In this document: piece after piece, positions 1,802 to 61,294 of the stretch
Layout of the letters: each line of letters starts with the position of its first letter
Position numbering within the stretch: position 1 is the first letter of the stretch
Assembly: GCF_947623445.1 (NCBI RefSeq)
Contig: NC_135243.1
Coordinates: forward strand, 20,034,479-20,098,478
Origin: Clavelina lepadiformis
Taxonomy: Eukaryota > Chordata > Ascidiacea > Aplousobranchia > Clavelinidae
DNA length: 64,000 nt
Direction: 5' to 3'
Notes under the pieces: generated by a model
Seen by the model: the letters and a program-made list of their open reading frames with translations, nothing else
Databases searched by the model: none
What the model was told of the DNA's origin: nothing
Program-made: the position numbers and the translations under genes

Positions 1802-4800
1802 ATGTTTTCATTGTGTTCCAAACTGGAAAAAGAAAATGTCAACAGCTTGGTGGAAAGTACACGTGACCTTTGCGTTTCAAAAGGAATTGTTATGCGGAAA
1901 ATAGATAGCCAATCACAAACCAAGGTTTGTATTTTAACAATAGTTTGTTTCATGATGCACATATACGGAGTGTTGATATTAACAGTACAGCGTTTTCAAG
2001 TTTACATTCACTACCATCATTATCATCTAAAATTTCAAAATAACTTAGATAAAATTTTATTGGAAAAACGAACAACTTGTTAAAACTCATTGAAACCAGT
2101 TCCGAAAGTTGGCTTATATTGCATATGTTGACATATAAGCTACATATGTTGACATCTTTGACAATACTGATAACTTAGAGCCTTGGAAGGAGGAGAATAA
2201 TGAGGAGGAGCTAATAGGAATAATGAGGAATTACTAAGTATAATGCGTGCTGCTGTAATATACCCATACTTTAGCTCCGCGTGTCTGCATCCAATAAAGA
2301 GCGTGGTTGACCCACTTTATGGACTGACCACAAAGACACGAAAGCAATGCTCAAAAACAAACATAACAGGACACGTGATCTTTGAATCGTTATCCACAAA
2401 ATCGCTCGTAGTTTAAGATTTATAAGTTTCATCACAGCGTGATATGTTGAATGTCATTTACATTTTTGTACGAGCCAACAGAGAACAGCAGAATACGTCT
2501 GGAGGCCGACTTGAAACGTCTTGAACTGTATTCTTGTAATAATACCGTCATACAAAGTTCTATAACAGCAAGAGTGAGGCATATTTTCAAAATTTGCAAG
2601 TTGGGTTAGTGAAAATTTCAAAATCTTGCAATGCCCTATGCTTATTAAAAAACGGAAAGCCTGATTGCAAGTTAGGTCTTTATATTGCTTGTTACGCAAA
2701 TTTGCATTCTTGTTTTCGTATATACCGTAAGATCTTTTTTCGGTTAACGAATACTTGCTTCATCATGCAATTACAAGTATCTTTACTGCTAACGCATTAA
2801 ATTATGAATATTTTAATGATTCAAGATTTGAATTAAGGGTGTCCAACCAATTCAGTTACAGTATTATGCATTAAATAAAACTAAGAGGTATAGTCTTGGA
2901 CTGGGCAGAAATACCTAACTTGTTACTTTGCTGGTTTCCTTTTGTTTGTAGACTTACATGTGTGTTCCATGCTCTTTGCTACCTTCACCTATCCCCAAAG
3001 ATGGATTTCAACTCTTGACATTTTTACAACCTCACATCAATAAGTTGATACATGATGTTAGCCAAGACGATGAATTTATGTCATCTGCTTTTAAGAAGTG
3101 AGAGTGAGACGTTAAGTAACTTTTCGTTAGCGTTTAATGCTCATTTCTTACAAACACCACGACATTTAAAGCTATTAATCCCTTTCATAGTGTTATCAAA
3201 GTTGATGATTTCACCAAGAGGCTATATGATATTTACAAAGCTTCAAAGGCATCTGATAAACAAGTATGTACCCATTGTGATGACTTTCAACTTTGGCAGA
3301 AAGTTTTTCAGTTTTGCCATATACTTTTGTTTAACGTTTTCCCCAGCTTCATAACGACTATCTTAAAACATCTACTGCATGTAACGTGTGGCTTGTTACT
3401 GGTAAATATTCTGTGTCACCGTGTAAAAGTTGTAAAGTGCAATATCATATTATAAAATTTGAAAAAAACTAATTTGCTTTATTATATTTTTGCCTAGAGG
3501 TTAGATTTCGGGATTTTGCGCTCTGATTACATGTTTGAATGCGTTGTCGACAAAAGTGGAAAAGAGTTTTTCAATCCCAAGCAAATTGAAATAAATACCA
3601 TTGCTTCAGGTGGCATAAAACTTGGCAGTGGACTGAGTTCTGTCCATTCTGATGTTTTACAATATGCAAAAATAAAAGAACTTACCGCTCATCTGCCTAA
3701 AAATGAAAGCTTAAGTAAAATTACCCAAGGATTTTTAACCGCTTGGAAAGATTACGGCAACCCAAATGCTATTATCCTAATCCTATGCAAAGATAATACA
3801 CCAAATATTTTTGATCAACGGGCTGTGGAATATGCAATTTATAACCTCGATGAACACATCACAGTGAGAAGGAAGACATGTTGGGAGCTTATTGCAAGCA
3901 TCGCACTGTCACCAGATGGCAAGCTCTTTGTGTGAGTGCATTTTTCGAATTACAGTATATCCACAAATATGTTAAACATTCGTAAAAAACACGCATGATG
4001 TCTTGTAAATTATTGATACTTCACCATAGTGACGACGAAGAAGTTGCCATTGTTTACTTTCGAGTTCTTTACACTGCAGACGATTACACCGATGAGCAGG
4101 TACTTGTCAAAAAACAATATTGTATATCAAAAAAGTTTCACATAACATAAATCTATTTTATCCATTGCTGTTAATCAAATGTTTCTGCAAGTTTTAGCAA
4201 ACTCTTAATATGTTTAAACACGATTGCAGTTTTGGGATGTTCGCCTCAAAGTCGAAATGAGTCGTGCCATACTTTGTCCCAGTATTGGCTACCAACTTGC
4301 CGGATGCAAAAAGATGCAAGAAGTCCTGGCAAAACCCGATGTTCTTGAAAGATTTATTGATGATGTCGATGTTGTCCGAAAAATAAGGAGCACTTTTGCT
4401 GGATTCTATGAGTTAAAAATGGTAAATTTATTTGAATATTGTTTCAAAAATGCCAAGCAACGTCATAAATAATCTTTATTATTTCATGCAATTTGAAAAT
4501 AATGTAATTACATTAAGCAAGGTTTATTTTAAGTGAAATCAAAAACAATGTTTTTCTTAATTTTGTTTTGTATAAAACATTGCATTCATAATTTATGCTT
4601 CATTTTTGATCACCAAACTTAGCATCTTATTTTTTATATTTAAATAGAAAAGCTTAATTTGCTATTTGTCATTGCTATTGATTTCCTTCTTTATCATTTT
4701 TGCTGAAACTTTTGTTTTATTGCTTGTTTGTATTTCCTGCTGCTGCTAAACTTGATGTTCAGACTTTATGACGTAGACAGAACCATATACTGTAGATTAT

Positions 4801-5461
4801 ACACTTAACAGAATTCTGATGGCGACAATGCTGTGCAGATGGCTCTCACAAATCCTGACCTTTATGTTCTAAAACCACAGCGGGAAGGAGGAGGTGAAGT
4901 CTTTGAAACAGTTGTCTTATTCGATTAGAAATGTTTCAAAGTATTTTCTCTATCAACCACCTAACTACATTGAAAAGCTTTTGTTTATTTCTCTTTTAAG
5001 GGAACAACATTTATGGTGAACATATAGTGACTTTACTCAGTGAGATTGGCAACGATGAAAGACGATGTGCTTATATTTTGATGGAAAAAATCTGCCCAAA
5101 ACCATTGGATAATATATTTGTTACTGCGAGTGGTCACCAAAATGTACAAGCTATAAGCGAGTTAGGAACATTTGGTGTAATACTGGCGTAAGTTTTGTTA
5201 TTATGCTTTTGTATTGCTCAAGGTATTACTGTAACTCGGGTGACACCAATAAAGCATTTTGTAGAAAAGGAATAATTGAAAGTTTTGAAGCATTGCTTTG
5301 TGAACCAAATTTGTCTAACTTAAGTTTTGTTTTGCAGACGAGGAAATGATGTTATTGAAAATTATTCTGCTGGTCATCTTCTGCGTTCAAAGTCCCACGA
5401 ACATAATGATGGAGGTATTGATAACGGCCTATCCGTACCGGATTCACCATTTCTTGTCTGA
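1802..5461 (+). CDS. GSS: Glutathione-synthetase-like ligase, copy 1a (9 exons, intact)
   Basis: Exons are 1802-1924, 2952-3097, 3191-3263, 3498-3931, 4030-4099, 4230-4421, 4812-4893, 5001-5187 and 5338-5461. All introns are GT-AG, phases agree, and the spliced length is 1431 nt (476 residues; human GSS 474). Family members are cytosolic homodimeric ATP-grasp enzymes that join gamma-Glu-Cys and glycine using ATP. Visible motifs are RSDYMF, EINTI (Mg ligands), NIFDQRA, QLAGCKK, KPQREGGGNNIYGEH (Gly-rich ATP loop), ILMEKI, ISELGTFGV and GHLLRSK. Oddities are IASG where the family has I-S-x-S, Thr at human position 214, and GGIDNGLSV where glutathione synthetases have GGVAAG-type loops. ATP chemistry looks preserved but substrate choice may differ. 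A solo LTR starts 114 bp after the stop. The family assignment is firm; the exact substrate is not. Confidence 0.93.
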
Positions 5462-10580: not shown

Positions 10581-11659
10581 TCAGACAAGAAATGGTGAAT
10601 CCAGTACAGCTAGGCCGCTACCAATACCTCCATCATTATGTTCGTGGGACTTTGAACGCAGAAGATGACCAGCAGAATAATTTTCAATAACATCATTTCC
10701 TCGTCTGCAAAACAAAAACTTGAGTTAGACAAATTTTGTTCACAAAAAACAATGCTACTAAACTTTCAATTATTCCTTTCCTACCAAATGCTTTATTGGT
10801 GTCACCCGAGTTACAATAATACCTTGAGCAATACAAAAGCATAATAACAAAACTTACGCCAGTATTACACCAAATATTCCTAACTCGCTTATAGCTTGTA
10901 CTTTTTGGTGACCACTAGCAGTAACAAATATATTATCCAATGGTATTGGGCAGATTTTTTCCATCAAAATATAAGCACATCGTCTTTCATCGTTGCCAAT
11001 CTCACTGAGTAAAGTCACTATATGTTCACCATAAATGTTGTTCCCTTAAAAGAGAAATAAACAAAAGCTTTTCTATGTAGTCAGGTGGTTGATAGAGAAA
11101 ATACTTTAAAACTTTTCTAATCGAATGAGACATCTGTTTTAAAAATTTTATCTCCTCCTTCCCGCTGTGGTTTTAGAACATAAAGATCAGGATTTGTGAG
11201 AGCCATCTGCACAGCATTGTCGCCATCAGAATTCTGTTAAGTGTAAAATCTACAGTTTATGTTTCTGTCTACGTCATAAAGTCTGAACATCAAAATCAGC
11301 AGCAGCAGGAAATACAAACAAGCAAAATAACAAAAGTTTCGGCCAAAATGAAAAAAAAGGAAATCAAAAGCAATGTATAATGAAAAAATTAAGCCTTTCC
11401 ATTTAAATACTAAACGAGAGATGCTAAGTTCGGTGATCAAAAATGAAGCATAAATTATGAAAGTAAAATTTTATACAAAACAATTTACACAAATATTGTT
11501 TTTTATTCCACTTAAACTAAATTTTGCCGAATGTAATTGCATTATTTTAAAATTGCATCAAATAGTAGAGATTATTCATGACTTTGCTTGGCATTCGTGA
11601 TACAATATTCAAATAATTTTACCATTTCTAGCTCATAGAATCCAGCAAAAGTGCTCCTT
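10581..11659 (-). pseudogene. Glutathione-synthetase-like pseudogene 1b (3' exons only)
   Basis: Exon 9 is at 10581-10704, exon 8 at 10858-11044, exon 7 at 11152-11233 and the last 37 nt of exon 6 at 11623-11659. Upstream exons 1-5 are missing, because homology ends inside exon 6 where an unrelated segment begins. The donor after exon 7 reads GGAGGAG|AT rather than GT, so the remaining exons would not splice normally. The Gly-rich ATP loop still reads QREGGG and the acceptor loop reads GGIGSGLAVLDSPFLV. Length and splice loss make this a pseudogene. It remains useful for tracing the acceptor-loop history of the family. Confidence 0.88.
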
Positions 11660-21659: not shown

Positions 21660-24600
21660 TCAGACAAGAAAGGGTGAATCTAGTACGGCTAGGCCGCTAC
21701 TAATACCTCCATCATTATGTTCGTGGGACTTTGAACGCAGAAGATGACCAGCAGAATAATTTTCAATAACATCATTTCCTCGTCTGCAAAACCAAAACTT
21801 GAGTTCAAACACGAATTTTGTTCACAAAAAAACAATGCTTCAAAACTTTCAATTATTCCTTTCCTACCAAATGCTATTTTGGTGTCAAACGAGCTACAGT
21901 AATATATTGAGCAATAAAAAAGCATACTAACAAAACTTACGCCAGTATTACACCAAATATTCCTAACTCGCTTATAGCTTGTACTTTTTGGTGACCACTA
22001 GCAGTAACAAATATATTATCCAATGGTTTTGGGCAGATTTTTTCCATCAAAATATAAGCACATCGTCTTTTATCGTTGCCAATCTCACAGAGTAAAGTCA
22101 CTATATCTTCACCATAAATGTTGTTCCCTTAAAAGAGAAATAAACAAAAACTTCTCTATGTAGTCAGGTGGTTGATAGAGAAAATACTTTGAAACTTTTC
22201 TAATCGAATGAGACATCTGTTTTAAAGATTTCACCTCCTCCTTCCAGCTGTGGTTTTAAAACATAAAGGTCAGGATTTGTGAGAGCCATCTGCACAGCAT
22301 GGTTGCCATCAGAATTCTGTTAAGTGTAAAATCTACAGTATATGGTTCTGTGTACGTCATAAAGTCTGAACATCAACATCAGCAGCAGCAAGAAATACAA
22401 ACAAAAATAAAACAAAATTTTCGGCCAAAATGAAAAAAAAGGAAATCAAAAGCAATGACAAATAGCAAATTAAGCCTTTCTATTTAAATATAAAGAGAAG
22501 ATACTAAATTCGGTGATCAACAATGAAGCATAAATTTTGAATGTAGGTTTACATACAAAACAAATTTACAAAAACATTGTTTTTTATTTTACTTAAAATA
22601 TATCTTGCTAAATGTAATTACATTTTTTTTAAATTGCATGAAATAATAAAGATTATTTATGATTTTACTTGGCATTTGCGAAAAAAAAACATTGAAATTA
22701 ATTTACCATTTCTAACTCATAGAATCCAGCAAAAGTGCTCCTTAATTTTTGGACAACGTCGACGTCATCAATAAATCTTTCAAGAACATCAGGTTTTGCC
22801 AGGACTTCTTGCATCTTTTTGCATCCGGCAAGTTGGTAGCCAATACTGGGACAAAGTATGGCACGACTCATTTCGACTTTGAGGCGAACATCCCAAAACT
22901 GCAATCGTGTTTAAACAATTTAAGATTATGTTACAGCTTGCAGAAACATTAGATTTTCAACAGCAATGCATAAAATAGATTTATGTTATGTGAAAGTTTC
23001 TTTGTATACAAGATTGTTTTTAGACAAGTACCTGCTCACCGGTGTAATCGTCTGCAGTGTAAAGAACTCGAAAGTAAACGATGGCAACTTCTTCGTCGTC
23101 ACTATGGTGAAGTATCAATAATTTACAAGACATCATGCGTGTTCTTTATGAATATTTAACACATTTGTGGATATACTGTAATTCGATAAAAGCACTCACA
23201 CAAAGAGCTTGCCATCTGGTGATAGTGCGATGCTTGCAATAAGCTCCCAACATGTCTTTCTTCTCACTATGATGTGTTCATCGAGGTCATAAATTGCATA
23301 TTCCACAGCTCGTTGATCAAAAATGTTTGGTTTATTTTCGTTGTATAAGATTAAGATAATGGCATTTGGGTTGCCGTAATCTTTCCAAGCGGTTAAAAAT
23401 CCATGGGCAACTCTACTTAAGCTTTCATTTTTAGGCAGATGAGCAGTAAGTTCTTTCATTTTTGCATATTGTAAGACATCAGAATGGACAGAACTCAGTC
23501 CACTGCCAAGTTTTACGCTACCTGAAGCAATTGTATTTATTTCAATTTGCTTGGGAACGAAAAATTCTTTTCCACTCTTGTCCGCAATGCATTGAAACAT
23601 GTAATCAGATCGCAAAATCCCGAAATCTAACCTCTAGGCAAAAATACAATAAAGCAAATTATACAAACCTACAACCTCTACAAACCACTCAGGCAACTAA
23701 TTAAGCGATTACTACTACCAGACAGTCTCACGCAGCAGATTCAACCAGAAGGTAAAAAACAAAAAGTCCTTTTTAGGACTATACCCCTCCCCCCCTCCCT
23801 AACGGGAAAGAAAGATATGGCTCTGACATATAAAGACAGAGTAAAAAGAAGAGAGGAATGGAAATTTAAAATTCCAGCAGATTACAATAAAGATAGAGAA
23901 GTCTCCATTAAACTGACGGACCACGCAACAAGGAAAGAAATATATCTGTTGCTAACTTCAGCTAAAGTTCAACTATCCGACATAGAAGGCATAGTACAAC
24001 GCCCAGGAAAGATAGTTGAACTCACATGCCAGTCAAAGGAGAGAGCCTTAAGAGTGGCTGAAAAACTCAAGCATAGAGACAACATATCAAACGTAATTGC
24101 ACACGGCGACGAATACGCAAAACTAACAGTAGGATGGGTCCCCATTGACTTTCCTCAAAGAGCGATTGACGAAGCATTTAGCAGAATGGGCTACGTAAAA
24201 CCAGCAATCCATGCAAAAGACACAATCTGCAGAAAGCAAGACGGACGGAGAATCCTGACGTACAAAAAAGAAAATCTAGAAAAAGTAAGACCACCTTCGT
24301 ATATCCACTTTGGACACTATCGCTTTTGGATAGAATACGAAGGACAGGAAAAAACATGCAGTTACTGCTCGGAACCAGGACATCTCGTACGAGATTGCCG
24401 ATACAGAATCCAAAACCAAGCAAAAACCTCACACACTTCGGAAGACCAGGAAAACCACACAACGACGGAAGGAATCACCTTCACACAAAACAATCCCGAT
24501 GCCACAGACGAACCCGACCCAACTCCAGCCGAATCTGTACAGCCGAGATACAACAAAGTACAGCACTCCACACCAGCAAACAAGCAACAAACGAAAGGTA

Positions 24601-27600
24601 ACGCAATCGAAAAACAATTGTTTGACCTATTCGATGGTTCTCCTCTAGCCACTAGCATAACCGAAGAAACAACGCCACAACGACAAAGAGACATAGCAGC
24701 CGCCTACTCGAACCGGGAAAACCAACAAAGGCAGAAAAGCACCAAGCGAAGGGAAAGAACACCTAACAATTCGAGCGACGAAAAACCTCCCCCACGAAAA
24801 CACAAAGAAGACGAAGACTCGGAAACTGACAGCACAGGATCAGACGACACAAGCACCGTCTTTAATAGTTCAATTGATGAAGGTACGTCAAAAGTTACAT
24901 GCAAATGTGGGGCCGAAGTGATGAGGCCAACAGCAAATGAAAAAATAGAATGCCCTAGTTGTTTAAACACATGGTTCTTATGTCATTGTGATGATAACAA
25001 CTTACAATATACAAATAGATACAGACAGTTTCAATGTGATGTATGCACCTATAGCCATGTTCCAGATGAGATGCAAACGAACCACACTGTATAATATTAT
25101 TTTAGAACTTATTTGTTTTTTGTGATGTCAAAACCTTTACCCGTGTTTTTTACAGAAGTTGAACGTACATTGTTACCCACCAAATCTCTTATCTTAATTA
25201 CCCTCATGGCCGCTTATCTCAAACTAAACACTTTAAATTGCCAAGGGCTTAATTGCAAATCGAAACGCACAGAACTCTTCGAATTCCTAAAAAGGCAAGA
25301 CGCGCACGTGCACCTGCTGCAAGAAACCAGATGTGCTCCGCACAACGAATTAAAATGGCGCTCGGAATGGGGCAAAGATAAAGCAATATTTAACTCGTGT
25401 TCTAGAAAATCAATGCCCAACAAAGGAGTAGCAATCTTAATTAACCACCCAGCCATAGAATTTAAGAAATGGGACCTGGACGAAGAGGGCCGACTGATCG
25501 CTGCGACCCTAACAATTTACCACGAAGTAATAAAACTCATAAATGTTTACGCCCCAAATGTAAAAGCCCACTCGACAAACGAAAACAACCTATTTTTTGA
25601 ACGCGCCCACCAGTATTTCACAGACAACGTCCCGACAATACTCGCAGGCGATTTTAACATCGTCGACGACCCCCAACTCGATAAAGACCCCCCGAAGCGA
25701 ATCAACGCAAGGAAAAGCGAACTGAAAGTCCTATGCGAAACCCATGACCTAAAAGACCACTTTCGAACTTTAAAGGGCAACGAAAAACAGTTCTCTTGGC
25801 AAGACGGCAACAGTAAATCGCGCCTAGACAGATTCTACCTGTCAAATAACATAACGGCTACGGAAATAGAATACGAGCACACGCACCTGTCAGACCATAA
25901 AATCGTAAAAATCCACATCAATGTTACAGCCCCCCCACCAAGGGGAAAACGCCGATGGATAAACAACACGCAGATATACAAATTTGAACCTTTTTTAAAC
26001 GCGATAAAAGAAAAATGGCCGCTTTGGGCAACGCTCAAGCCATTGTACTTCGACAATCCAAGCGACTGGTGGACCGAAATTAAAAAAAGACTAAAAACGC
26101 TGATACGCCGATCTACCAAAGAAATGAACGCGGCAAACAACGAGAAAAGTGCAGAAACGATAAAAGCCTACGAAGATGCAATCGCAGCCTTAGGCAACAA
26201 TGAAATAACATACAGCGAGTACCTGGACGCAAAACGCAACCTACGAAACCAAAGAAAAAAAGAAACCATAGAAAAAACGGCCAAAAACAGAAAATTCGAA
26301 GGAAAACTAGGCAGCAAAGCGTTTTTTCAAAAATATAAAAACAAACAGAAACAAACGTTTATATCCGAACTCTACGATGAAAACTTCCTCCCAACTCAAA
26401 ACCCAAAAGAAATGACAAAACTCGCTCAGTCATTTTACGAACAATTGTACAAAAAAACGGAAACGAACGAAAACGCGCAGTATGCTTTCTTAAACGAAAC
26501 CACCCGAAAATTAAATACGGAAGATAACAAAAATCTAGAAAAACCAATAACCATAGAAGAAATTGAAAACGCAGTAAAATCTATGAAAAACGGAAAATCA
26601 CCCGGCCCTGACGGCTTATCCGCAGAACTCTATAAAGAATGTTGGCCACTAATAAGAAACGAAATACGAGAGCTCATACAATACTGGTTTGACCAAAAAG
26701 TAATCCCCAGGGAAATTAAAAAAGGTATCATAACTCTCATCCACAAAAAAGGAGATGACGCAGACCTAAAAAATTATAGGCCCATAACGCTGCTAAACGT
26801 AGAATACAAAATATATACCAAAATATTAACAAACAGATTAAAAGAAATTATGCCAAATTTGATAGGAGACGGTGGGAAAAACAATAAGCGAAGGCACCAC
26901 CCTTCTAAGAGACCTCTTCGAACAGAGCTCAAAAAGAGGGCTCGAGGCGTTTCTTGTCTCACTAGACTTTGAAAAAGCTTTCGATTCTATAGAAAAAGAC
27001 TGGCTAAAAAAAAATCTGTGCGCGATAAATCTATCCACTAAAATACGGCACATTATCGAAAACCTATACGAAGACAGCACCGCCGAAATTATGATAAACG
27101 GTCACCGATCAGCGGAAATAACGCTAGACAGAGGAGTAAGACAAGGCGACCCACTAAGCTTTTTTTTATTTCTAATCGCAACCGAACCCTTGACTGAAAA
27201 ACTGAGCAAAACCCAAGACATAAAAGGAATCCAATTAAGCGGTCGAAGAGAAATTAAGAATGTCAGCTATGCAGACGATGTGACTCTAACACTGAAAAAT
27301 ATCGCTTCAGTTGAAAAAGCCCTAGACCTCGTCGAAAAATTTAAACCCGCCTCGGGACTTAAATTAAACATCAAAAAAACCCAAGGCCTGATAATAAACG
27401 GCGACCCCCCAACACTCCTACTACCAGATATAAAATGGAACAAAACAACCCTAAATCTACTCGGCACGACAATCGGAATAATAAATTTGAACCACCTCTG
27501 GCAAGAAACCCAAAAACAAGTCGAAAACAAAATAGAAGAAATTAAAAAAACGTACGCCACGCTCGACGCTAAAGAAATTCTAATCAAATCGAAGCTTTTA

Positions 27601-30192
27601 GCAATCACCAACAACGCGGCGCAAACGTATCCTCCCCCAGTAAACAGAATGCGATCAATAAACGAAAAAGTAAAAAATTACGCAGTAGGAAAATTCCCCC
27701 ACGTAAATATAGACACCCTTCAACTCCCGAAACTCGAGGGCGGCCTAAACCTCCCAAACTTCGAAATATACGCGGACTTAACGTATCTAAAATCCATCAG
27801 AAAATACTGCCTTGCCAGAGTTCTAAACGAGCCCCTTAGCGCCCACAACAGCTATATCGAATACCAGATTGGCCACGTAATTCCCCGAACTTTAGAAGTT
27901 GTACACCTAAACAATCTCCCCCACACCGACATCCGATCCCCATATTATGAAAAAGTAATCGAAATTATTAAAAAATACGATCTGAAAAAAATTGACCTCA
28001 TCTGCGGAAGTCTAAAAAAACGTACAACAGAATAATAAGCAAACCAAGAACACAATCCAGAAATACCCAAACAGAACGCAAAAGATGGGAGAGAATACAC
28101 TGCCCTGAACTCCCAAGCTATCTACGGACCTTTAACTTTAAACTCGAAAGCAACCTGCTACCTTTTAACACAGATATAAACCAATACGCACCAACAACAA
28201 AAAACAGCTGCCGTTTTTGTAGAATCGGACCAGATACCGCCTACCACTTATTTCACAAATGCCCCCAGACCAAGATACAATGGAAAAAAACAATAACGAT
28301 CGCCGAAAAAACATTAAACCTAAAAATTAATAAAGAAAATGTCGAGAAGCTGTGCGCCCTCAGGCACGACATGGGACTCGAACTAAACACCGACAAAGTT
28401 CTCACCGTACTAATTACAACGATGAACCACCAAATATGGAAAACGAGACTTAAATGCGTAATCGAGAACCAACAGTTCTCCTCAGAAAAACTGTCGAACG
28501 ATATTTACAGAAGTTTTAAATACAGAATCTCCACCCTACGCAAAAATAACCCAGACATTGTAAGAAACCTTACCATCCCCCTCTGAACATGTAACGTCTA
28601 TACCATTTGTGTGTTTATATGCGTTCTGGAATGTACGCCTTTACCTACTTTTGTCTTCGCACTGTTTATGCTTCAGTCTCATAATGCGTATTGTGAAATA
28701 TAAAATGACAATCTATCACAAATATATATGTAATCATTCCTCATCAATTGCATCTGTCTGAATATAATTATTTACATGACATGTATATGCCTCCAAAACG
28801 GAGAAATATTGTACCAAGAACACTCATTATAGTACTCTCATCATGTATTCGCATTGTCTATGCTTCATTCTCATAATGTGTATTGTGAAACATAAAATGA
28901 CATCCTATCACAACTATATATGTTATCATTCCTAATCAATTGCATCTGTCTGAATATAAAGATTTATATAACATGTATACGCCTCCAAAACGGAGAAATA
29001 TTGTACCAACACTTGCTGTAACTTAAACGAAATGATTTTTGATCTCGTTCTTTTTTTAAATCCTTTATTCGCGTGCAAATAATCCTTTTAATCGTGAATA
29101 AACAAAAAAAAAAAATACAATAAAGCAAATTAGAGTTTTTCTCGTTCTATAATAATATATTGCACTTTATACATTTTACACGGTGGCACAGAATATTTAC
29201 CAGTAACAAGCCACACGTTACATACAGTAAATATTTTAAGATAGTCGTTATGAAGCTGGAGAAAACTTTATACAAAAGTATATGGCAAAACTGAAAAACT
29301 TTCCGCCAAAGTTGATAGTACAATAGGTAGGCCTATATACCTTTTTACCAGATGCCTTTGAAGCTTTGTAAATATCATACAGCCTCTTGGTAAAATCATC
29401 AACTTTGATAACGCTATGAATGGGATTAACAGCTTTAAATATCGTGGAGTTTATAAGAAATGAGCATTAAACGCTAACGAAAAATTACTTAACGTATCAC
29501 TCTCACTTCTTAAAAGCAGATAACATAAATTCATCGTCCTGGCTAACATCATGTATCAACTTATTGATGTGAGGTTGTAAAAATGTCAAGAGTTGAAATC
29601 CATCTTTGGGGATAGGTGAAGGTAGCAAAGAGCATGGAACACACATGTATGTCTACAAACAACAGGAAACCAACAAGGTACTAAGTTAGGTATTTGTGAG
29701 TGAGTCCATAAAGTGAGTCTACCACGCTCTTTAACGGATGCAGACACGCGGAGCTAAAGTATGGGTATATTACAGTAGCACGCATTGTTCGCAGTTAACC
29801 TCGTTCCAAGGCACTAAGTTATCAGTATTGTCAAAGATGTCAACATATGTAGCCTATATGTCAATATATGCATTATAGGCCAGAATTCGCAACTGGTTTC
29901 AATGAGTTTAAACAAGTTGTTCGTTTTTCCAACAAAATTTTATCTAAGTTTTTTTGAAATTTCGGATGATAGGGGTGGTGAGTATAAACTTAAAAACGCT
30001 GTACTGTTAATATCAACACTCCGTATATATGCATCATGAAACAAACTACTGTATTGTTAAAATACAAACCTTTGTTGGTGATTGGCCATCTCTTTTCCGC
30101 ATAAGAATCCCTTTTGAAACGCAAACGTCACGTGTACTTTCCACCAAGCTGTTGACATTTTCTTTTTCCAATTTGGAACACAATGAAAACAT
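21660..30192 (-). CDS. GSS: Glutathione-synthetase-like ligase, copy 1c (9 exons, LINE in intron 3)
   Basis: Exons in reading order are 30070-30192, 29507-29652, 29341-29413, 23200-23633, 23032-23101, 22707-22898, 22235-22316, 21941-22127 and 21660-21783. Every exon has the same length as in 1a, giving 476 residues with GT-AG introns. ATP-grasp motifs EINTI, QLAGCKK and ILMEKI are present. Differences from 1a: the Gly-rich loop reads KPQLEGGG (Arg to Leu at a position otherwise Arg in copies 1a, 1b, 2a, 2b and human), human position 214 is Lys, and the acceptor loop reads GGISSGLAVLDSPFLV. Intron 1 is 417 bp against 1027 bp in 1a. A 5.45-kb LINE in antisense orientation enlarges intron 3 to 5.7 kb. 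The reading frame is intact, but both the Leu change and the LINE could lower function. Confidence 0.9.
23641..23661. repeat. LINE target-site duplication, left
   Basis: 21 bp beginning AAAATACAATAAAG, repeated exactly at 29112-29132. The uninterrupted site in unit 2, with two substitutions, is at about 60216-60236, inside intron 3 of synthetase 2c. Confidence 0.92.
23817..25094 (+). CDS. LINE ORF1 protein with CCHC zinc knuckle
   Basis: 425 residues from ATG. ORF1 proteins of this group bind RNA and act as nucleic-acid chaperones in the LINE ribonucleoprotein. The N-terminal half (about 60-180) has the character of the RRM-like region seen in Tx1 ORF1s. A CCHC knuckle CSYCSEPGHLVRDC lies at about residues 181-194. 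A long Gln/Glu/Lys/Ser-rich low-complexity stretch follows (about 200-350). The C terminus carries a second Cys-rich cluster with CKCGAEV, CPSC and CDVC, suggesting an additional zinc-binding module. The frame is fully open. The stop lies about 30 bp before the first candidate start of ORF2. Confidence 0.88.
   Translation: MALTYKDRVKRREEWKFKIPADYNKDREVSIKLTDHATRKEIYLLLTSAKVQLSDIEGIVQRPGKIVELTCQSKERALRVAEKLKHRDNISNVIAHGDEYAKLTVGWVPIDFPQRAIDEAFSRMGYVKPAIHAKDTICRKQDGRRILTYKKENLEKVRPPSYIHFGHYRFWIEYEGQEKTCSYCSEPGHLVRDCRYRIQNQAKTSHTSEDQENHTTTEGITFTQNNPDATDEPDPTPAESVQPRYNKVQHSTPANKQQTKGNAIEKQLFDLFDGSPLATSITEETTPQRQRDIAAAYSNRENQQRQKSTKRRERTPNNSSDEKPPPRKHKEDEDSETDSTGSDDTSTVFNSSIDEGTSKVTCKCGAEVMRPTANEKIECPSCLNTWFLCHCDDNNLQYTNRYRQFQCDVCTYSHVPDEMQTNHTV
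25125..28586 (+). pseudogene. LINE ORF2: endonuclease-reverse transcriptase, two frameshifts
   Basis: Candidate starts are ATG at 25125 or 25206. The endonuclease domain shows LNTLNCQG, LLQETR, LAGDFNIV, SRLDRFYLS and LSDHKIV. RT motifs follow: KSPGPDGLSAELYKE, NYRPITLLNVEYK, SLDFEKAFDSIE, RGVRQGDPLS and the catalytic YADD. A C-terminal CRFC...H...C knuckle occurs near 28210-28265. The frame shifts near 26865-26871, where the stretch before GKTISEGTT is shortened, and again in an A-run near 28012-28020, after which the original frame resumes to the stop at 28586. The total of roughly 1,150 residues is normal for the clade. Domain order is complete, so the copy was disabled by only a few events. 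Confidence 0.88.
28655..29012 (+). repeat. Tandem duplication in LINE 3' UTR
   Basis: Two direct copies of about 165 bp, 28655-28818 and 28849-29012, each running from a TCGCA-TGT-TATGCTTCA-type start to CGGAGAAATATTGTACCAA. They differ by scattered substitutions, so the duplication is older than this insertion and probably belongs to the LINE lineage. Confidence 0.85.
29112..29132. repeat. LINE target-site duplication, right
   Basis: Exact repeat of 23641-23661, directly after the A-rich tail of the LINE and followed by resumed synthetase intron 3 sequence. Confidence 0.92.
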
Positions 30193-32509: not shown

Positions 32510-32966
32510 GCAACCAACTCAGTTACAGTATTATGCATTAAACAAAACTAAGAGGTATAGTCTTGGGCTAAGCAGATATACCTAACTTGTTACTTTGTTG
32601 GTTTTCTGTTGCTTGTAGACATACATATGTGTTCCATGCTTATTGCTACCTTTACCTATCCCTTTCATAGTGTTATCAAAGTTGAAGATTTCACCAAGAG
32701 GCTATATGATATTTACAAAGCTTCAAAGGCATATGATAAACAAGTATGTACCCATTGTGATGACTTTCAACTTTGCAGAAAGTTTTTCAGTTTTGCCATG
32801 GACTTTTGTTTAACGTTTTCCCCAGCTTCATAACGACTATCTTAAAACATCTACTGTATGTAACGTGTGGCTTGTTACTGGTAAATATTCTGTGCCACCG
32901 TGTAAAAGTTGTAAAGTGCAATATCATATTATAAATCTTGAAAAAAAATAATTTGCTTTATTATAA
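32510..32966 (+). pseudogene. Glutathione-synthetase-like fragment 1d (exons 2-3)
   Basis: This includes the 3' end of intron 1, the acceptor and first part of exon 2 (from 32620, reading TYVCSMLIATFTYP-like sequence), then jumps directly into the end of intron 2 and all of exon 3 (about 32676-32748), followed by intron 3 sequence to 32966. The internal deletion joins two sites sharing the short sequence ATCCC, typical of microhomology-mediated loss. It ends at the duplication junction. It is a relic, and shows that a further + strand copy once stood here. Confidence 0.82.
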
Positions 32967-33904: not shown

Positions 33905-36900
33905 ATGTTTTCATTGTGTTCCAAACTGGAAAAAGAAAATGTCAACAGCTTGGTGGAAAGTACACGTGACCTTTGCGTTTCAAAAGGAATTGTTATGCGG
34001 AAAATAGATAGCCAATCACAAACCAAGGTTTGTATTTTAACAATAGTTTGTTTCATGATGCACATATACGGAGTGTTGATATTAACAGTACAGCGTTTTC
34101 AAGTTTACATTCACTACCATCATTATCATCTAAAATTTCAAAAAAACTTAGATAAAATTTTATTGGAAAAACGAACAACTTGTTGAAACTCATTGAAACC
34201 AGTTCCGAAAGTTGGCTTGTATTGCATATGTTGACATATAAGCTACATATGTTGACATCTTTGACAGTACTGATAACTTAGAGCCTTGGAAGGAGGAGAA
34301 TAATGAGGAGGAGCTAATAGGAATAATGAGGAATTACTAAGTATAATGCGTGCTGCTATAATATACCCATACTTTAGCTCCGCGTGTCTGCATCCAATAA
34401 AGAGCTGGGTTGACCCACTTTATGGACTGACCACAAAGACACGAAAGCAAGGCTCAAAAACAAACATAACAGGACACGTGATCTTTGAATCGTTATCCAC
34501 AAAATCGCTCGTAGTTTAAGATTTATAAGTTTCATCACAGCGTGATATATTGAATGTCATTTACATTTTTGTACGAGCCAACAGAGAACAGCAGAATACG
34601 TCTGGAGGCCGACTTGAAACGTCTTGAACTGTATTCTTGTAATAATACCGTCATACAAAGTTCTATAACAGCAAGAGTGAGGCATATTTTCAAAATTTGC
34701 AAGTTGGGTTAGTGAAAATTTCAAAATCTTGCAATGCCCTATGCTTATTAAAAAACGGAAAGCCTGATTGCAAGTTAGGTCTTTATATTGCTTGTTACGC
34801 AAATTTGCATTCTTGTTTTCGTATATACCGTAAGATCTTTTTTCGGTTAACGAATACTTGCTTCATCATGCAATTACAAGTATCTTTACTGCTAACGCAT
34901 TAAATTATGAATATTTTAATGATTCAAGATTTGAATTAAGGGTGTCCAACCAATTCAGTTACAGTATTATGCATTAAATAAAACTAACAGGTATAGTTTT
35001 GGACTGGGCAGAAATACCTAACTTGTTACCTTGCTGGTTTCCTTTTGTTTGTAGACTTACATGTGTGTTCCATGCTTTTTGCTACCTTCACCTATCCCCA
35101 AAGATGGATTTCAACTCTTGACATTTTTACAACCTCACATCAATAAGTTGATACATGATGTTAGCCAGGACGATGAATTTATGTCAGCTGCTTTTAAGAA
35201 GTGAGAGTGAGACGTTAAGTAACTTTTTGTTAGCGTTTAATGCTCATTTCTTTCAAACACCACGACATTTAAAGCTATTAATCCCTTTCATAGTGTTATC
35301 AAAGTTGATGATTTCACCAAGAGGCTATATGATATTTACAAAGCTTCAAAGGCATCTGATAAACAAGTATGTACCCATTGTGATGACTTTCAACTTTGGC
35401 AGAAAGTTTTTCAGTTTTGCCATGTAGGCTACTTTTGTTTAACGTTTTCCCCAGCTTCATAACGACTATCTTAAAACATCTACTGCATGTAACGTGTGGC
35501 TTGTTACTGGTAAATAATCTGTGTCACCGTGTAAAAGTTGTAAAGTGCAATATCATATTATAAAATTTGAAAAAAACTAATTTGCTTTATTATATTTATG
35601 CCTAGAGGTTAGATTTCGGGATTTTGCGCTCTGATTACATGTTTGAATGCGTTGTCGACAAAAGTGGAAAAGAGTTTTTCAATCCCAAGCAAATTGAAAT
35701 AAATACCATTGCTTCAGGTGGCATAAAACTTGGCAGTGGACTGAGTTCTGTCCATTCTGATGTTTTACAATATGCAAAAATAAAAGAACTTACCGCTCAT
35801 CTGCCTAAAAATGAAAGCTTAAGTAAAATTACCCAAGGATTTTTAACCGCTTGGAAAGATTACGGCAACCCAAATGCTATTATCCTAATCCTATGCAAAG
35901 ATAATACACCAAATATTTTTGATCAACGGGCTGTGGAATATGCAATTTATAACCTCGATGAACACATCATAGTGAGAAGGAAGACATGTTGGGAGCTTAT
36001 TGCAAGCATCGCACTGTCACCAGATGGCAAGCTCTTTGTGTGAGTGCATTTTTCGAATTACAGTATATCCACCAATATGTTAAACATTCGTAAAGAACAC
36101 GCATGATGTCTTGTAAATTATTGATACTTCACCATAGTGACGACGAAGAAGTTGCCATTGTTTACTTTCGAGTTCTTTACACTGCAAACGATTACACCGA
36201 TGAAAAGGTACTTGTCAAAAAACAATATTGTATATCAAAAAAGTTTCACATAACATAAATCTATTTTATCCATTGCTGTTAATCAAATGTTTCTGCAAGT
36301 TTTAGCAAACTCTTAATATGTTTAAACACGATTGCAGTTTTGGGATGTTCGCCTCAAAGTCGAAATGAGTCGTGCCATACTTTGTCCCAGTATTGGCTAC
36401 CAACTTGCCGGATGCAAAAAGATGCAAGAAGTCCTGGCAAAACCCGATGTTCTTGAAAGATTTATTGATGATGTCGATGTTGTCCGAAAAATAAGGAGCA
36501 CTTTTGCTGGATTCTATGAGTTAGAAATGGTAAATTTATTTGAATATTGTTTCAAAAATGCCAAGCAACGTCATAAATAATCTTTATTATTTGATGCAAT
36601 TTGAAAATAATGTATTTACATTAAGCAAGGTTTATTTTAAGTGAAATCAAAAACAATGTTTTTCTTAATTTTGTTTTGTATAAAACATTGCATTCATAAT
36701 TTATGCTTCATTTTTGATCACCGAACTTAGCATCTTATTTTTTATATTTAAATAGAAAAGCTTAATTTGCTATTTGTCATTGCTATTGATTTCCTTCTTT
36801 TTCATTTTTGCCGAAACTTTTGTTTTATTGCTTGTTTGTATTTCCTGCTGCTGCTAAAGTTGATCTTCAGACTTTATGACGTACACAGAACCATATACTG

Positions 36901-37569
36901 TAGATTATACACTTAACAGAATTCTGATGGCGACAATGCTGTGCAGATGGCTCTCACAAATCCTGACCTTTATGTTCTAAAACCACAGCGGGAAGGAGGA
37001 GGTGAAGTCTTTGAAACAGTTGTTTTATTCGATTAGAAATGTTTTAAAGTATTTTCTCTATCAACCACCTAACTACATTGAAAAGCTTTTGTTTATTTCT
37101 CTTTTAAGGGAACAACATTTATGGTGAACATATAGTGACTTTACTCAGTGAGATTGGCAACGATGAAAGACGATGTGCTTATATTTTGATGGAAAAAATC
37201 TGCCCAAAACCATTGGATAATATATTTGTTACTGCTAGTGGTCACCAAAAAGTACAAGCTATAAGCGAGTTAGGAACATTTGGTGTAATACTGGCGTAAG
37301 TTTTGTTATTATGCTTTTGTATTGCTCAAGGTATTACTGTAACTCGGGTGACACCAATAAAGCATTTGGTAGAAAAGGAATAATTGAAAGTTTTGAAGCA
37401 TTGCTTTGTGAACCAAATTTGTCTAACTTAAGTTTTGTTTTGCAGACGAGGAAATGATGTTATTGAAAATTATTCTGCTGGTCATCTTCTGCGTTCAAAG
37501 TCCCACGAACATAATGATGGAGGTATTGATAACGGCCTATCCGTACCGGATTCACCATTTCTTTTCTGA
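33905..37569 (+). CDS. GSS: Glutathione-synthetase-like ligase, copy 2a (9 exons, intact)
   Basis: Exons are 33905-34027, 35055-35200, 35294-35366, 35606-36039, 36138-36207, 36338-36529, 36920-37001, 37109-37295 and 37446-37569. Lengths and splice sites equal those of 1a; the product is 476 residues. It differs from 1a at about eight residues, including Ile for Thr near the end of exon 4, TANDYTDEK for TADDYTDEQ, Glu for Lys at the end of exon 6, Lys for Asn in exon 8, and a C-terminal Phe instead of Val. It shares the unusual IASG loop, Thr at human position 214 and the GGIDNG acceptor loop. The ATP-binding KPQREGGGNN is intact, so with 1a it is the better candidate for an active enzyme. Confidence 0.93.
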
Positions 37570-44915: not shown

Positions 44916-45994
44916 TCAGACAAGAAATGGTGAATCCAGTACAGCTAGGCCGCTACCAATACCTCCATCATTATGTTCGTGGGACTTTGAACGCAGAAGA
45001 TGACCAGCAGAATAATTTTCAATAACATCATTTCCTCGTCTGCAAAACAAAAACTTGAGTCAGACAAATTTTGTTCACAAAAAACAATGCTACTAAACTT
45101 TCAATTATTCCTTTCCTACCAAATGCTTTATTGCTGTCACCCGATTGACAGTAATACCTCGAGCAATACAAAAGCATAATAACAAAACTTACGCCAGTAT
45201 TACACCAAATATTCCTAACTCGCTTATAGCTTGTACTTTTTGGTGACCACTAGCAGTAACAAATATATTATCCAATGGTATTGGGCAGATTTTTTCCATC
45301 AAAATATAAGCACATCGTCTTTCATCGTTGCCAATCTCACTGAGTAAAGTCACTATATGTTCACCATAAATGTTGTTCCCTTAAAAGAGAAATAAACAAA
45401 AGCTTTTCTATGTAGTCAGGTGGTTGATAGAGAAAATACTTTAAAACTTTTCTAATCGAATGAGACATCTGTTTTAAAAATTTCATCTCCTCCTTCCCGC
45501 TGTGGTTTTAGAACATAAAGATCAGGATTTGTGAGAGCCATCTGCACAGCATTGTTGCCATCAGAATTCTGTTAAGTGTAAAATCTACAGTTTATGTTTC
45601 TGTCTACGTCATAAAGTCTGAACATCAAAATCAGCAGCAGCAGGAAATACAAACAAGCAAAATAACAAAAGTTTCGGCCAAAATGAAAAAAAAGGAAATC
45701 AAAAGCAATGTATAATGAAAAAATTAAGCCTTTCCATTTAAATACTAAACGAGAGATGCTAAGTTCGGTGATCAAAAATGAAGCATAAATTATGAAAGTA
45801 AAATTTTATACAAAACAAATTACACAGATATTGTTTTTTATTCCACTTAAACTAAATTTTGCCGAATGTAATTGCATTATTTTAAAATTGCATCAAATAG
45901 TAGAGATTATTCATGACTTTGCTTGGCATTCGTGATACAATATTCAAATAATTTTACCATTTCTAGCTCATAGAATCCAGCAAAAGTGCTCCTT
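44916..45994 (-). pseudogene. Glutathione-synthetase-like pseudogene 2b (3' exons only)
   Basis: Exon 9 44916-45039, exon 8 45193-45379, exon 7 45487-45568 and the end of exon 6 45958-45994. It has the same truncation and the same lost donor after exon 7 (GGAGGAG|AT) as 1b, so both defects predate the segmental duplication. The acceptor loop is GGIGSG. Confidence 0.88.
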
Positions 45995-58235: not shown

Positions 58236-61200
58236 TCAGACAAGAAAGGGTGAATCTAGTACGGCTAGGCCGCTACTAATACCTCCATCATTATGTTCGT
58301 GGGACTTTGAACGCAGAAGATGACCAGCAGAATAATTTTCAATAACATCATTTCCTCGTCTGCAAAACCAAAACTTGAGTTCAAACACGAATTTTGTTCA
58401 CAAAAAAACAATGCTTCAAAACTTTCAATTATTCCTTTCCTACCAAATGCTATTTTGGTGTCAAACGAGCTACAGTAATATATTGAGCAATAAAAAAGCA
58501 TACTAACAAAACTTACGCCAGTATTACACCAAATATTCCTAACTCGCTTATAGCTTGTACTTTTTGGTGACCACTAGCAGTAACAAATATATTATCCAAT
58601 GGTATTGGGCAGATTTTTTCCATCAAAATATAAGCACATCGTCTTTCATCGTTGCCAATCTCACAGAGTAAAGTCACTATATCTTCACCATAAATGTTGT
58701 TCCCTTAAAAGAGAAATAAACAAAAGCTTTTCTATGTAGTCAGGTGGTTGATAGAGAAAATACTTTGAAACTTTTCTAATCGAATGAGACATCTGTTTTA
58801 AAGATTTCACCTCCTCCTTCCAGCTGTGGTTTTAAAACATAAAGGTCAGGATTTGTGAGAGCCATCTGCACAGCATGGTTGCCATCAGAATTCTGTTAAG
58901 TGTAAAATCTACAGTATATGGTTCTGTGTACGTCATAAAGTCTGAACATCAACATCAGCAGCAGCAAGAAATACAAACAAAAATAAAACAAAATTTTCAG
59001 CCAAAATGAAAAAAAAGGAAATCAAAAGCAATGACAAATAGCAAATTAAGCCTTTCTATTTAAATATAAAGAGAAGATACTAAATTCGGTGATCAACAAT
59101 GAAGCATAAATTTTGAATGTAGGTTTACATACAAAACAAATTTACAAAAACATTGTTTTTTATTTTACTTAAAATATATCTTGCTAAATGTAATTACATT
59201 TTTTTTAAATTGCATGAAATAATAAAGATTATTTATGATTTTACTTGGCATTTGCGAAAAAAAAACATTGAAATTAATTTACCATTTCTAACTCATAGAA
59301 TCCAGCAAAAGTGCTCCTTAATTTTTGGACAACGTCGACGTCATCAATAAATCTTTCAAGAACATCAGGTTTTGCCAGGACTTCTTGCATCTTTTTGCAT
59401 CCGGCAAGTTGGTAGCCAATACTGGGACAAAGTATGGCACGACTCATTTCGACTTTGAGGCGAACATCCCAAAACTGCAATCGTGTTTAAACAATTTAAG
59501 ATTATGTTACAGCTTGCAGAAACATTAGATTTTCAACAGCAATGCATAAAATAGATTTATGTTATGTGAAAGTTTCTTTGTATACAAGATTGTTTTTAGA
59601 CAAGTACCTGCTCACCGGTGTAATCGTCTGCAGTGTAAAGAACTCGAAAGTAAACGATGGCAACTTCTTCGTCGTCACTATGGTGAAGTATCAAAAATTT
59701 ACAAGACATCATGCGTGTTCTTTATGAATATTTAACACATTTGTGGATATACTGTAATTCGATAAAAGCACTCACACAAAGAGCTTGCCATCTGGTGATA
59801 GTGCGATGCTTGCAATAAGATCCCAACATGTCTTTCTTCTCACTATGATGTGTTCATCGAGGTCATAAATTGCATATTCCACAGCTCGTTGATCAAAAAT
59901 GTTTGGTTTATTTTCGTTGTATAAGATTAAGATAATGGCATTTGGGTTGCCGTAATCTTTCCAAGCGGTGAAAAATCCATGGGCAACTCTACTTAAGCTT
60001 TCATTTTTAGGCAGATGAGCAGTAAGTTCTTTTATTTTTGCATATTGTAAGACATCAGAATGGACAGAACTCAGTCCACTGCCAAGTTTTACGCTACCTG
60101 AAGCAATGGTATTTATTTCAATTTGCTTGGGAACGAAAAGTTCTTTTCCACTCTTGTCCGCAATGCATTGAAACATGTAATCAGATCGCAAAATCCCGAA
60201 ATCTAAACTCTAGGCATAAATATAATAAAGCAAATTAGTGTTTTTCTCGTTCTATAATAATATATTGCACTTTACAACTTTTACACGGTGGCACAGAATA
60301 TTTACCAGTAACAAGCCACACGTTACATACAGTAGATATTTTAAGATAGTCGTTATGAAGCTGGAGAAAACTTTATACAAAAGTATATGGCAAAACTGAA
60401 AAACTTTCTGCCCAAGTTGAAAGTACAATGGGTACTTACCTTTTTACCAGATGCCTTTGAAGCTTTGTAAATATCATACAGCCTCTTGGTGAAATCATCA
60501 ACTTTGATAACGCTATGAATGGGATTAACAGCTTTAAATTTCGTGGAGTTTATAAGAAATGAGCATTAAACGCTAACGAAAAATTGCTTAACGTATCACT
60601 CTCACTTCTTAAAAGCAGCTGACATAAATTCATCGTCCTGGCTAACATCATGTATCAACTTATTGATGTGAGGTTGTAAAAATGTCAAGAGTTGAAATCC
60701 ATCTTTGGGGATAGGTGAAGGTAACAAAGAACATGGAACACACATGTATGTCTACAAACAACAGGAAACCAACAAGGTAATAAGTTAGGTATTTGTGAGT
60801 GAGTCCATAAAGTGAGTCAACCACGCTCTTTAACGGATGCAGACACTCGGAGCTAAAGTATGGGTATATTACAGTAGCACGCATTGTTCGCAGTTAACCT
60901 CGTTCCAAGGCACTAAGTTATCAGTATTGTCAAAGATGTCAACATATGTAGCCTATATGTCAATATATGCATTATAGGCCAGCATTCGCAACTGGTTTCA
61001 ATGAGTTTAAACAAGTTGTTCGTTTTTCAAACAAACTTTTATCTAAGTTTTTTTGAAATTTATGATGATAGGGGTGATGGTGAGTATAAACTTAAAAACG
61101 CTGTACTGTTAATATCAACAGTCCGTATATATGCATCATGAAACAAACTACTGTATTGTTAAAATACAAACCTTTGTTGAAGATGGGCCATCTCTTTTCC

Positions 61201-61294
61201 GCATAAGAATCCCTTTGGAAACGCAAAGGTCACGTGTACTTTCCACCAAGCTGTTGACATTTTCTTTTTCCAATTTGGAACACAATGAAAACAT
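58236..61294 (-). CDS. GSS: Glutathione-synthetase-like ligase, copy 2c (9 exons, intact)
   Basis: Exons in reading order are 61172-61294, 60606-60751, 60440-60512, 59776-60209, 59608-59677, 59283-59474, 58811-58892, 58517-58703 and 58236-58359. Exon lengths equal those of the other copies, giving 476 residues. Intron 3 is only 230 bp because the LINE of 1c is absent. It shares with 1c the Arg-to-Leu change in KPQLEGGG, Lys at human position 214 and the GGISSG acceptor loop, so these changes predate the segmental duplication and have been kept without frame loss. Activity is uncertain for the same reason as in 1c. Confidence 0.92.

What the first reader, a model, noticed from the sequence alone, without database searches (positions are those of the whole stretch)
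3498..3931. Synthetase copies have lost the conserved gamma-Glu-Cys binding loop
Exon 4 of 1a and the matching exons of 1c, 2a and 2c align without gaps to human GSS, yet the I-S-x-S-F-x-G loop after EINTI (human about 148-151) reads I-A-S-G, and Glu214 is Thr (1a, 2a) or Lys (1c, 2c). These positions contact the gamma-glutamyl moiety in human GSS (family knowledge, from memory). The ATP/Mg residues are kept. An enzyme with preserved chemistry and altered donor pocket may join a different peptide. This is the strongest candidate for an undescribed function in the window.
Basis: partly seen in the sequence, partly recalled or inferred. Interest (0 to 1): 0.85.

Follow-up and report, generated by a model that had tools for sequence, protein, structure and literature searches.

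The report
Sea-squirt glutathione-synthetase paralogs with altered pockets
A sea squirt carries a cluster of extra glutathione-synthetase genes whose ATP machinery is mostly kept but whose substrate pocket has changed, on the same chromosome as a near-canonical copy and alongside altered copies of the preceding enzyme, which hints at a second, uncharacterised peptide-making route.

Summary
The window is chromosome 4 of the ascidian Clavelina lepadiformis: contig C4 has exactly the published scaffold N50 length. The observation's core is right. 1a/2a read IASGG with Thr214; 1c/2c read IASGS with Lys214. Contacts S149, S151 and E214 are gone; R125, N216, Q220, R267, Y270 and R450 stay. Two details were wrong: the human alignment has gaps, and 1c/2c carry R367L.

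A near-canonical GSS (E214, S151, F152) lies about 90 kb away. Further changes sit at Q211 and in the acceptor-side A-loop. In the young paralog clade 3 of 8 columns with three or more residues are pocket sites; against the near-canonical copy the pocket is not enriched for change. dN/dS of 0.26-0.40 (0.54-0.63 in the two youngest pairs) suggests constraint. Unexpectedly, glutamate-cysteine ligase has three tandem copies, two with changes in a conserved motif.

Best reading: neofunctionalised GSS-type ligases with changed specificity, resembling nematode GS-like proteins but in a chordate. Substrate unknown; expression untested.

The parts
1802..5461 (+). Copy 1a: GSS-like gene, 9 exons (1796-1924 as modelled, ATG at 1802; 2952-3097; 3191-3263; 3498-3931; 4030-4099; 4230-4421; 4812-4893; 5001-5187; 5338-5458; TGA 5459-5461), 476 aa
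   Evidence: spliced alignment; junctions and stop
3498..3931 (+). Exon 4 of 1a, the reported feature; carries the donor-binding loop and positions 211-220
3603..3617 (+). 1a codons for human positions 149-153 (A S G G I; human S A S F G)
3789..3800 (+). 1a codons for human positions 211-214 (K D N T; human Q E K E)
5420..5425 (+). 1a codons for A-loop positions 462-463 (D N; human A A; soybean homoglutathione synthetase L P)
10584..11658 (-). Copy 1b: 3' fragment (end of exon 6 to exon 9), frame broken at the exon 7/8 junction in the model; relic
21660..23633 (-). Copy 1c exons 4-9 and stop (IASGS, N211, K214, R367L, A-loop SS)
23662..29112 (+). LINE-like insertion inside intron 3 of 1c, absent from the matching place in 2c
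   Evidence: blocks; zinc-knuckle ORF; the endonuclease/reverse-transcriptase nature of the other ORFs is my reading, no search was run on them
29341..30192 (-). Copy 1c exons 1-3 from the ATG
   Evidence: modelled there as 1d
33905..37569 (+). Copy 2a: GSS-like gene, 98.5% identical in protein to 1a (IASGG, K211, T214, A-loop DN)
44919..45993 (-). Copy 2b: 3' fragment matching 1b; relic
58236..61294 (-). Copy 2c: GSS-like gene (IASGS, N211, K214, R367L, A-loop SS)

Best explanation
The window copies are duplicated, neofunctionalised eukaryotic-type glutathione synthetases of an ascidian. Shown: full-length GSS homology and shared gene structure; R125, R267 and R450 kept, and in 1a every ATP-side position tested; loss of S151 and E214, which hold the gamma-glutamyl group, and of Q211, which positions Y270; a changed A-loop, which meets the incoming amino acid. 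Inferred: they still activate a carboxylate with ATP and join it to an amino acid, but gamma-Glu-Cys is not the donor, or not the preferred one. Because the carboxylate clamp R267 and the Cys-side clamp R125 remain while the contacts S151 and E214 are replaced by Gly and Thr/Lys, I propose a donor that keeps a head carboxylate but has a missing, masked or different alpha-amino group; the acceptor may be an amino acid other than glycine. Two of three tandem glutamate-cysteine ligase copies with changes in a conserved motif could supply that donor.
For: Residue table over the Clavelina copies plus human, potato, soybean and yeast; contacts from the T. brucei GSH complex. A near-canonical copy at chr4 19.942-19.945 Mb could free the others from making glutathione. 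Close paralogs: chr9 10.29-Mb copy vs 1a, 2c and p0, 4 of 12 pocket sites each, against 42, 43 and 47 of 478 overall, P 0.015, 0.017, 0.023; 1a vs p0 4 of 12, P 0.012. Of 8 columns with three or more states among five young loci, 3 are pocket sites (211, 214, 462), Fisher P = 6e-4. Against human, the pocket is conserved beyond the rest in potato, soybean and yeast (0, 1, 0 of 12 changed) and in the near-canonical copy (2 of 12, P 0.003), but no longer in 1a or 2c (6 of 12 each, P 0.31 and 0.36). Nonsynonymous deficit in the 5 young-clade pairs tested, P 3e-4 or lower. GCLC triplication with motif changes in G2 and G3; dN 0.152, dS 0.64 between them. Precedent: nematode GS-like proteins that lost gamma-EC activity while keeping the ATP site (PMC5919673).
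Against: No expression, enzymology or structure. Against the near-canonical copy the pocket of the young copies is not enriched for change (4 to 6 of 12, P 0.13-0.49), nor in any comparison with the chr9 11.28-Mb copy (P 0.26-0.55); 1a vs 2c (P 0.094) and 2c vs p0 (P 0.33) are not significant. 1c/2c carry R367L, which could mean loss of activity. dN/dS near 0.4, and 0.54-0.63 in the youngest pairs, is relaxed compared with 0.17-0.21 in deep comparisons. The chr9 10.29-Mb copy keeps all six Glu-pocket residues with a changed loop, so a changed loop alone need not mean a new donor. A-loop Ser or Gly falls near natural variation (PMC2845819).
Confidence: 0.5

Rival explanations
1. They are still glutathione synthetases: the tunicate enzyme tolerates these pocket changes and the extra copies add dosage or differ only in kinetics.
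For: R125, N216, Q220, R267, Y270 and R450 are intact in 1a, 1c, 2a and 2c; S149A already occurs in the near-canonical copy; A-loop Ser or Gly occurs in genuine GS enzymes (PMC2845819).
Against: E214, S151, R267 and N216 are described as strictly conserved across T. brucei, human and yeast, and Lys at 214 reverses the charge. Position 214 has three residues within a clade of about 90% identity.
Confidence: 0.2
2. Relaxed or dying copies, or pseudoenzymes: duplicates on the way to loss, or inactive subunits that pair with the canonical GSS and tune it (GSS is a dimer).
For: Relics sit in the same cluster (1b, 2b, a stop-bearing copy at 20.029-20.033 Mb); the chr9 15.50-Mb copy has lost its exon 5 donor site; R367L in 1c/2c; ATP-side changes in the chr9 11.28-Mb (4 of 17) and 15.50-Mb (2 of 17) copies; dN/dS 0.26-0.63 in the young clade; no pocket enrichment against the near-canonical copy.
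Against: Nonsynonymous deficit in each of the 5 young-clade pairs tested; five cluster genes (1a, 1c, 2a, 2c, p0) keep open frames and splice sites; among young loci pocket sites vary more (5 of 12) than ATP-side sites (1 of 17).
Confidence: 0.25
3. Assembly or gene-model artefact: the two 30-kb units are uncollapsed haplotypes, and residues are mis-spliced or mis-aligned.
For: Units 1 and 2 are about 98-99% identical in three long blocks and 95-96% in two others, within what ascidian heterozygosity could give (recalled); 9 haplotypic duplications had to be removed by hand from this assembly.
Against: The loop and positions 211-220 lie in one uninterrupted exon, 434 bases long in all nine copies; the loop and Lys214 recur in p0 at 20.025-20.028 Mb; QV 67.4. 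Haplotypic status of unit 2 would change the copy number, not the residues.
Confidence: 0.03

Closest known systems
Eukaryotic glutathione synthetase (GSS, PF03917; human 2HGS, yeast 1M0T, potato 5OES)
   Same: Homology over the whole length; ATP-side residues in 1a/2a; R125, R267, R450; same size
   Different: S149, S151, Q211, E214 and A462-A463 replaced; many clustered copies
GS-like proteins of cyst nematodes (Globodera pallida GSS22/GSS30, PDB 5OEU/5OET; PMC5919673)
   Same: Duplicated GSS with the ATP site kept, the cysteine-side Arg kept and the gamma-Glu pocket changed; the published clade 3 members tested had lost gamma-EC activity
   Different: Host is an ascidian; nematode rows were not put in my tree, so separate descent is inferred from the clade of all nine Clavelina rows apart from human, yeast and plants. 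2 of 6 Glu-pocket residues changed in 1a/1c/2a/2c, where GSS22 and GSS30 have all six changed. No sign of a secretion signal: an in-frame TAA stands within 15 codons upstream of the ATG in all four window copies (read from the sequence; no signal-peptide program run, an upstream exon is not excluded). A-loop changes and GCLC paralogs in addition
Homoglutathione synthetase (soybean, 3KAJ) and rice hydroxymethyl-GSH synthetase OsGS2 (PMC6508825)
   Same: GSS paralogs with changed acceptor preference; the soybean A-loop reads GGVLPG, the same positions as changed here
   Different: Plant enzymes keep gamma-Glu-Cys as donor, and soybean keeps the whole Glu pocket; here the donor side is changed too

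Membership tests
Eukaryotic glutathione synthetase family (PF03917), by homology | Sequence similarity to GSS | tested here: met
   Exons of the window copies match PF03917 over the cut-off; 1a exon 4 matches 2HGS at 5e-17; 1a 39% identical to human GSS over the alignment
Eukaryotic glutathione synthetase family (PF03917), by homology | ATP/Mg-side residues | tested here: inconclusive
   0 of 17 positions changed in 1a; 1 of 17 (R367L) in 2c; 1c also has R367L
Functional glutathione synthetase (makes GSH) | gamma-Glu-Cys contacts R125, S149, S151, E214, N216, R267 conserved | tested here: not met
   S149A, S151G and E214T/K in all four copies; contacts
Functional glutathione synthetase (makes GSH) | Catalysis of gamma-Glu-Cys + Gly + ATP | not testable with these tools
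   needs recombinant protein
Homoglutathione synthetase type (changed acceptor only) | A-loop substitution with an intact donor pocket | tested here: not met
   A-loop changed (DN/SS) but the donor pocket is changed too
Nematode GS-like effector family | Descent from tylenchid GSS duplications | tested here: inconclusive
   The host is an ascidian and all nine Clavelina rows form one clade, which speaks against it; nematode sequences were not placed in the tree
Nematode GS-like effector family | Gland expression and secretion signal | not testable with these tools
   no expression data; the N-terminus was read by eye only

The most novel reading that the evidence does not exclude
Clavelina runs a second, parallel two-step peptide pathway beside glutathione: altered glutamate-cysteine ligases (chr1 G2, G3) build a non-standard dipeptide or pseudo-dipeptide, and the altered GSS cluster (window copies and p0, possibly the chr9 copies) adds a non-standard amino acid, giving undescribed small thiols or acyl-peptides, perhaps for chemical defence or metal handling. 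The two altered GSS subfamilies have changed opposite halves of the clamp on the donor head (window type loses E214 and keeps R267; chr9 11.28/15.50-Mb type has R267Q and keeps an acid at 214), so they may use different donors.
Probability: 0.3. Interest if true: 0.85.

Novelty: new variant of a known kind. Interest (0 to 1): 0.62.

Why it matters
Glutathione synthesis is deeply conserved, and PMC5919673 calls diversity in the gamma-Glu pocket highly unusual among eukaryotes. A chordate with altered copies of both enzymes of the pathway, each beside a near-canonical copy, would be another case of GSS neofunctionalisation, outside plant parasitism. It would point to an unknown metabolite in an animal already known for cytotoxic alkaloids (PMC10884593), and it is directly testable with a handful of recombinant proteins and thiol metabolomics.

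Tried and rejected
Plant-parasitic nematode origin: considered first because of the published GS-like effectors; rejected because contig C4 has exactly the length of the Clavelina scaffold N50 and C9 fits chromosome 9. The nematode cuticle-collagen search gave 0 hits but had no positive control. Not everything matches the genome note: the held genome has 209,060,895 bases in 95 contigs against 210,089,204 in 102 scaffolds, and C1 is 28,783,666 against 28,789,166, so it may be another version of the assembly.

Tunicate GH6 domain: searched, 0 hits, no positive control. Cellulose-synthase-like hit on chr9: fits a tunicate, not needed. COX1: 0 hits although 8 of 14 control genomes rang, so no mitochondrial-code test. 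The Rfam SSU search did not complete.

No structural model of the pocket was made.

Loop change alone as a sign of new function: rejected, since S149A is in the near-canonical copy and the chr9 10.29-Mb copy has a changed loop with an intact Glu pocket.

GCL motif: the block 243-263 of human GCLC was chosen after seeing the alignment (G2 4 of 12 conserved sites changed, P 0.028; G3 6 of 12, P 0.001). In a scan of the whole protein this region is the peak for G3; for G2 the peak is at 319-343. The motif claim is weaker for G2.

Full report
Where it is. The window is G000:C4:20034479-20098478. Contig C4 is 25,070,715 bases long, exactly the scaffold N50 printed in the genome note of Clavelina lepadiformis, kaClaLepa1.1; C9, 15,725,681 bases, fits chromosome 9 at 15.73 Mb (I read parts 1 and 2 of 3 of PMC10884593). 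The host is a colonial ascidian.

Exon 4 of 1a (3498-3931) encodes KQIEINTIASGGIKLGSG and, further on, CKDNTPNIFDQR. A spliced alignment gave nine-exon models with GT-AG introns and TGA stops for 1a, 2a and 2c; 1c needs a 5.4-kb LINE-like insertion to be spliced out with intron 3. 1b and 2b are 3' fragments. Units 1 (about 0.9-31.7 kb) and 2 (about 33.0-62.8 kb) are 98-99% identical over three long blocks and 95-96% over two others, and differ by transposon insertions.

The rest of the family. A whole-genome search with PF03917 gave 56 matches, all on C4 and C9. Outside the window I modelled a near-canonical copy at C4:19.942-19.945 Mb; an intact copy at 20.025-20.028 Mb (p0); a disrupted copy at 20.029-20.033 Mb (p1); and three copies on chr9 at 10.29, 11.28 and 15.50 Mb. 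In the 15.50-Mb copy the exon 5 donor is lost. In a maximum-likelihood tree of 13 rows the nine Clavelina rows stand on one side of a branch (100/100) from human, yeast and plants, with 1a+2a and 1c+2c as supported pairs; deeper forks inside are open, the root is for drawing only, and the human and yeast rows are long. I infer that the duplications arose after the split from vertebrates.

The pocket. Contacts come from the T. brucei GSH complex (PMC2845819, passages and section 3.3 in full): gamma-Glu is held by R267, S151, E214 and N216 (human numbers), Cys by R125 and S149, the glycine carboxylate by R450 and the A-loop V461-A462; a Gln or Glu, which I map to 211, positions a Tyr that I map to Y270. 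PMC5919673 (abstract and one Results section read) gives the Glu pocket as R, E, two Q, N and Y; I mapped the two Q to Q211 and Q220 by alignment. Results: human, potato, soybean and yeast share all six Glu-pocket residues. The near-canonical copy has Q211E only, plus S149A. The chr9 10.29-Mb copy keeps all six but has A149, A151 and S152. 1a/2a have K211 and T214; 1c/2c have N211 and K214; p0 has N211, K214 and F270; the chr9 11.28/15.50-Mb pair has N/H211, D214, V/L220 and Q267. The A-loop is VAA in human, potato, yeast and the near-canonical copy; VLP in soybean homoglutathione synthetase; IDN in 1a/2a; ISS in 1c/2c; IGS in p0 and the chr9 10.29-Mb copy. Of 17 ATP-side positions, against human: 1a 0 changed, 2c 1 (R367L), p0 0, near-canonical 0, chr9 11.28 Mb 4, chr9 15.50 Mb 2. 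R367 lies in QREGGGNN, which I take for the G-loop by its glycines.

More than drift? Pocket = 12 sites from the two papers. Young clade: chr9 10.29-Mb copy vs 1a 4 of 12 against 42 of 478 (P 0.015), vs 2c 4 of 12 (P 0.017), vs p0 4 of 12 (P 0.023); 1a vs p0 4 of 12 (P 0.012); 1a vs 2c 3 of 12 (P 0.094); 2c vs p0 2 of 12 (P 0.33). Against the near-canonical copy there is no enrichment (4 to 6 of 12, P 0.13-0.49), nor against the chr9 11.28-Mb copy (6 or 7 of 12, P 0.26-0.55). Against human, pocket sites are conserved beyond the rest in the near-canonical copy (2 of 12, P 0.003) but not in 1a, 2c or p0 (6, 6, 7 of 12). Across five young loci, 80 of 477 columns vary, with 5 of 12 pocket sites (P 0.035) and 1 of 17 ATP-side sites; pocket sites with their neighbours vary at 12 of 32 (P 0.003); 8 columns show three or more residues, 3 of them pocket sites (211, 214, 462; P 6e-4) and one, 268, next to R267 (1c was left out of this count because its exons lie in two pieces; it reads as 2c at the pocket sites). 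Pairwise dN/dS is 0.26-0.40 in the young clade, 0.63 and 0.54 in the nearly identical pairs 1a/2a and 1c/2c, 0.40 in the chr9 11.28/15.50-Mb pair, and 0.17-0.21 in deep comparisons. The nonsynonymous deficit is significant in the 6 GSS pairs tested, five of the young clade and the chr9 11.28/15.50-Mb pair (P 3e-4 or lower). The copies look constrained, though less than in deep comparisons.

The step before. PF03074 (glutamate-cysteine ligase) gave 20 matches, all at chr1 23.779-23.811 Mb. Three full-length tandem genes can be modelled, G1, G2 and G3, without stops, plus an exon 1-2 relic near 23.785 Mb. Of 224 positions identical in human, yeast and G1, G2 changes 24 and G3 changes 28; in a scan of the whole protein this region is the peak of change for G3, not for G2. 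G2 and G3 differ at dN 0.152 and dS 0.64, so both look constrained. That the motif lies in the active site is recalled; two paper searches gave listings with nothing usable on it.

How it most likely works. The ATP chemistry should still activate a carboxylate and let an amine attack it. R267, whose T. brucei counterpart holds the glutamyl carboxylate, and R125, on the Cys part, remain; S151 and E214, which hydrogen-bond the gamma-glutamyl group, and Q211 are replaced, and the acceptor loop is altered. I infer a donor with a head carboxylate but a different or absent amino group, and possibly a different acceptor. The chr9 11.28/15.50-Mb pair shows the opposite half-change. This is a proposal, not a result.

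What is known. GSS duplicates with changed acceptor are known in plants (PMC6508825, passages including parts of the abstract; soybean homoGSS). GSS duplicates with a changed Glu pocket and lost gamma-EC activity are known in a cyst nematode. I found no report for tunicates: 'ascidian' or 'tunicate' with 'glutathione synthetase' gave 3 and 12 papers (10 of the 12 listed), and 'ascidian' with 'glutamate-cysteine ligase' gave 8; by the titles and abstract starts shown none describes such paralogs (listings only, open-licence papers only).

Verdict. The residues are real and the pocket is altered; a near-canonical copy exists; a changed substrate is the most likely reading at about one half, with decay and retained GSH synthesis as live rivals.

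Noticed in passing
G000:C1:23776381-23810730 (L017, L018, L019, L020): Three tandem glutamate-cysteine ligase catalytic genes, two with changes in the MGFGMGxxCLQxTFQA motif; taken into the main argument.
   Followed up: yes
window 41886-44093 and 51122-53329: Two inverted copies, 100% identical over 2208 bp, of a DNA transposon with a DDE_Tnp_1_7 ORF of 341 aa (piggyBac-type by recall), in unit 2 only; looks recently active.
   Followed up: partly
window 14368-14931 and 48719-49282 (minus strand): Glyco_transf_10 (fucosyltransferase) C-terminal ORF, duplicated with the GSS copies (first copy scanned); an ORF with a likely membrane segment at 18471-18926 may be its N-terminus (by eye).
   Followed up: partly
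window 32658-32965: A further relic of the GSS exon 3 region between the two units.
   Followed up: no
L010 3467-3468 (chr9 15.50 Mb): Where the other copies have the GT donor after exon 5, this GSS-like copy reads AT (counted by eye in the sequence); probably a damaged gene, though the rest is open.
   Followed up: partly
L015 (G000:C9:12557660-12558118): Weak Cellulose_synt match with a family-2 glycosyltransferase ORF, possibly the tunicate cellulose synthase.
   Followed up: no
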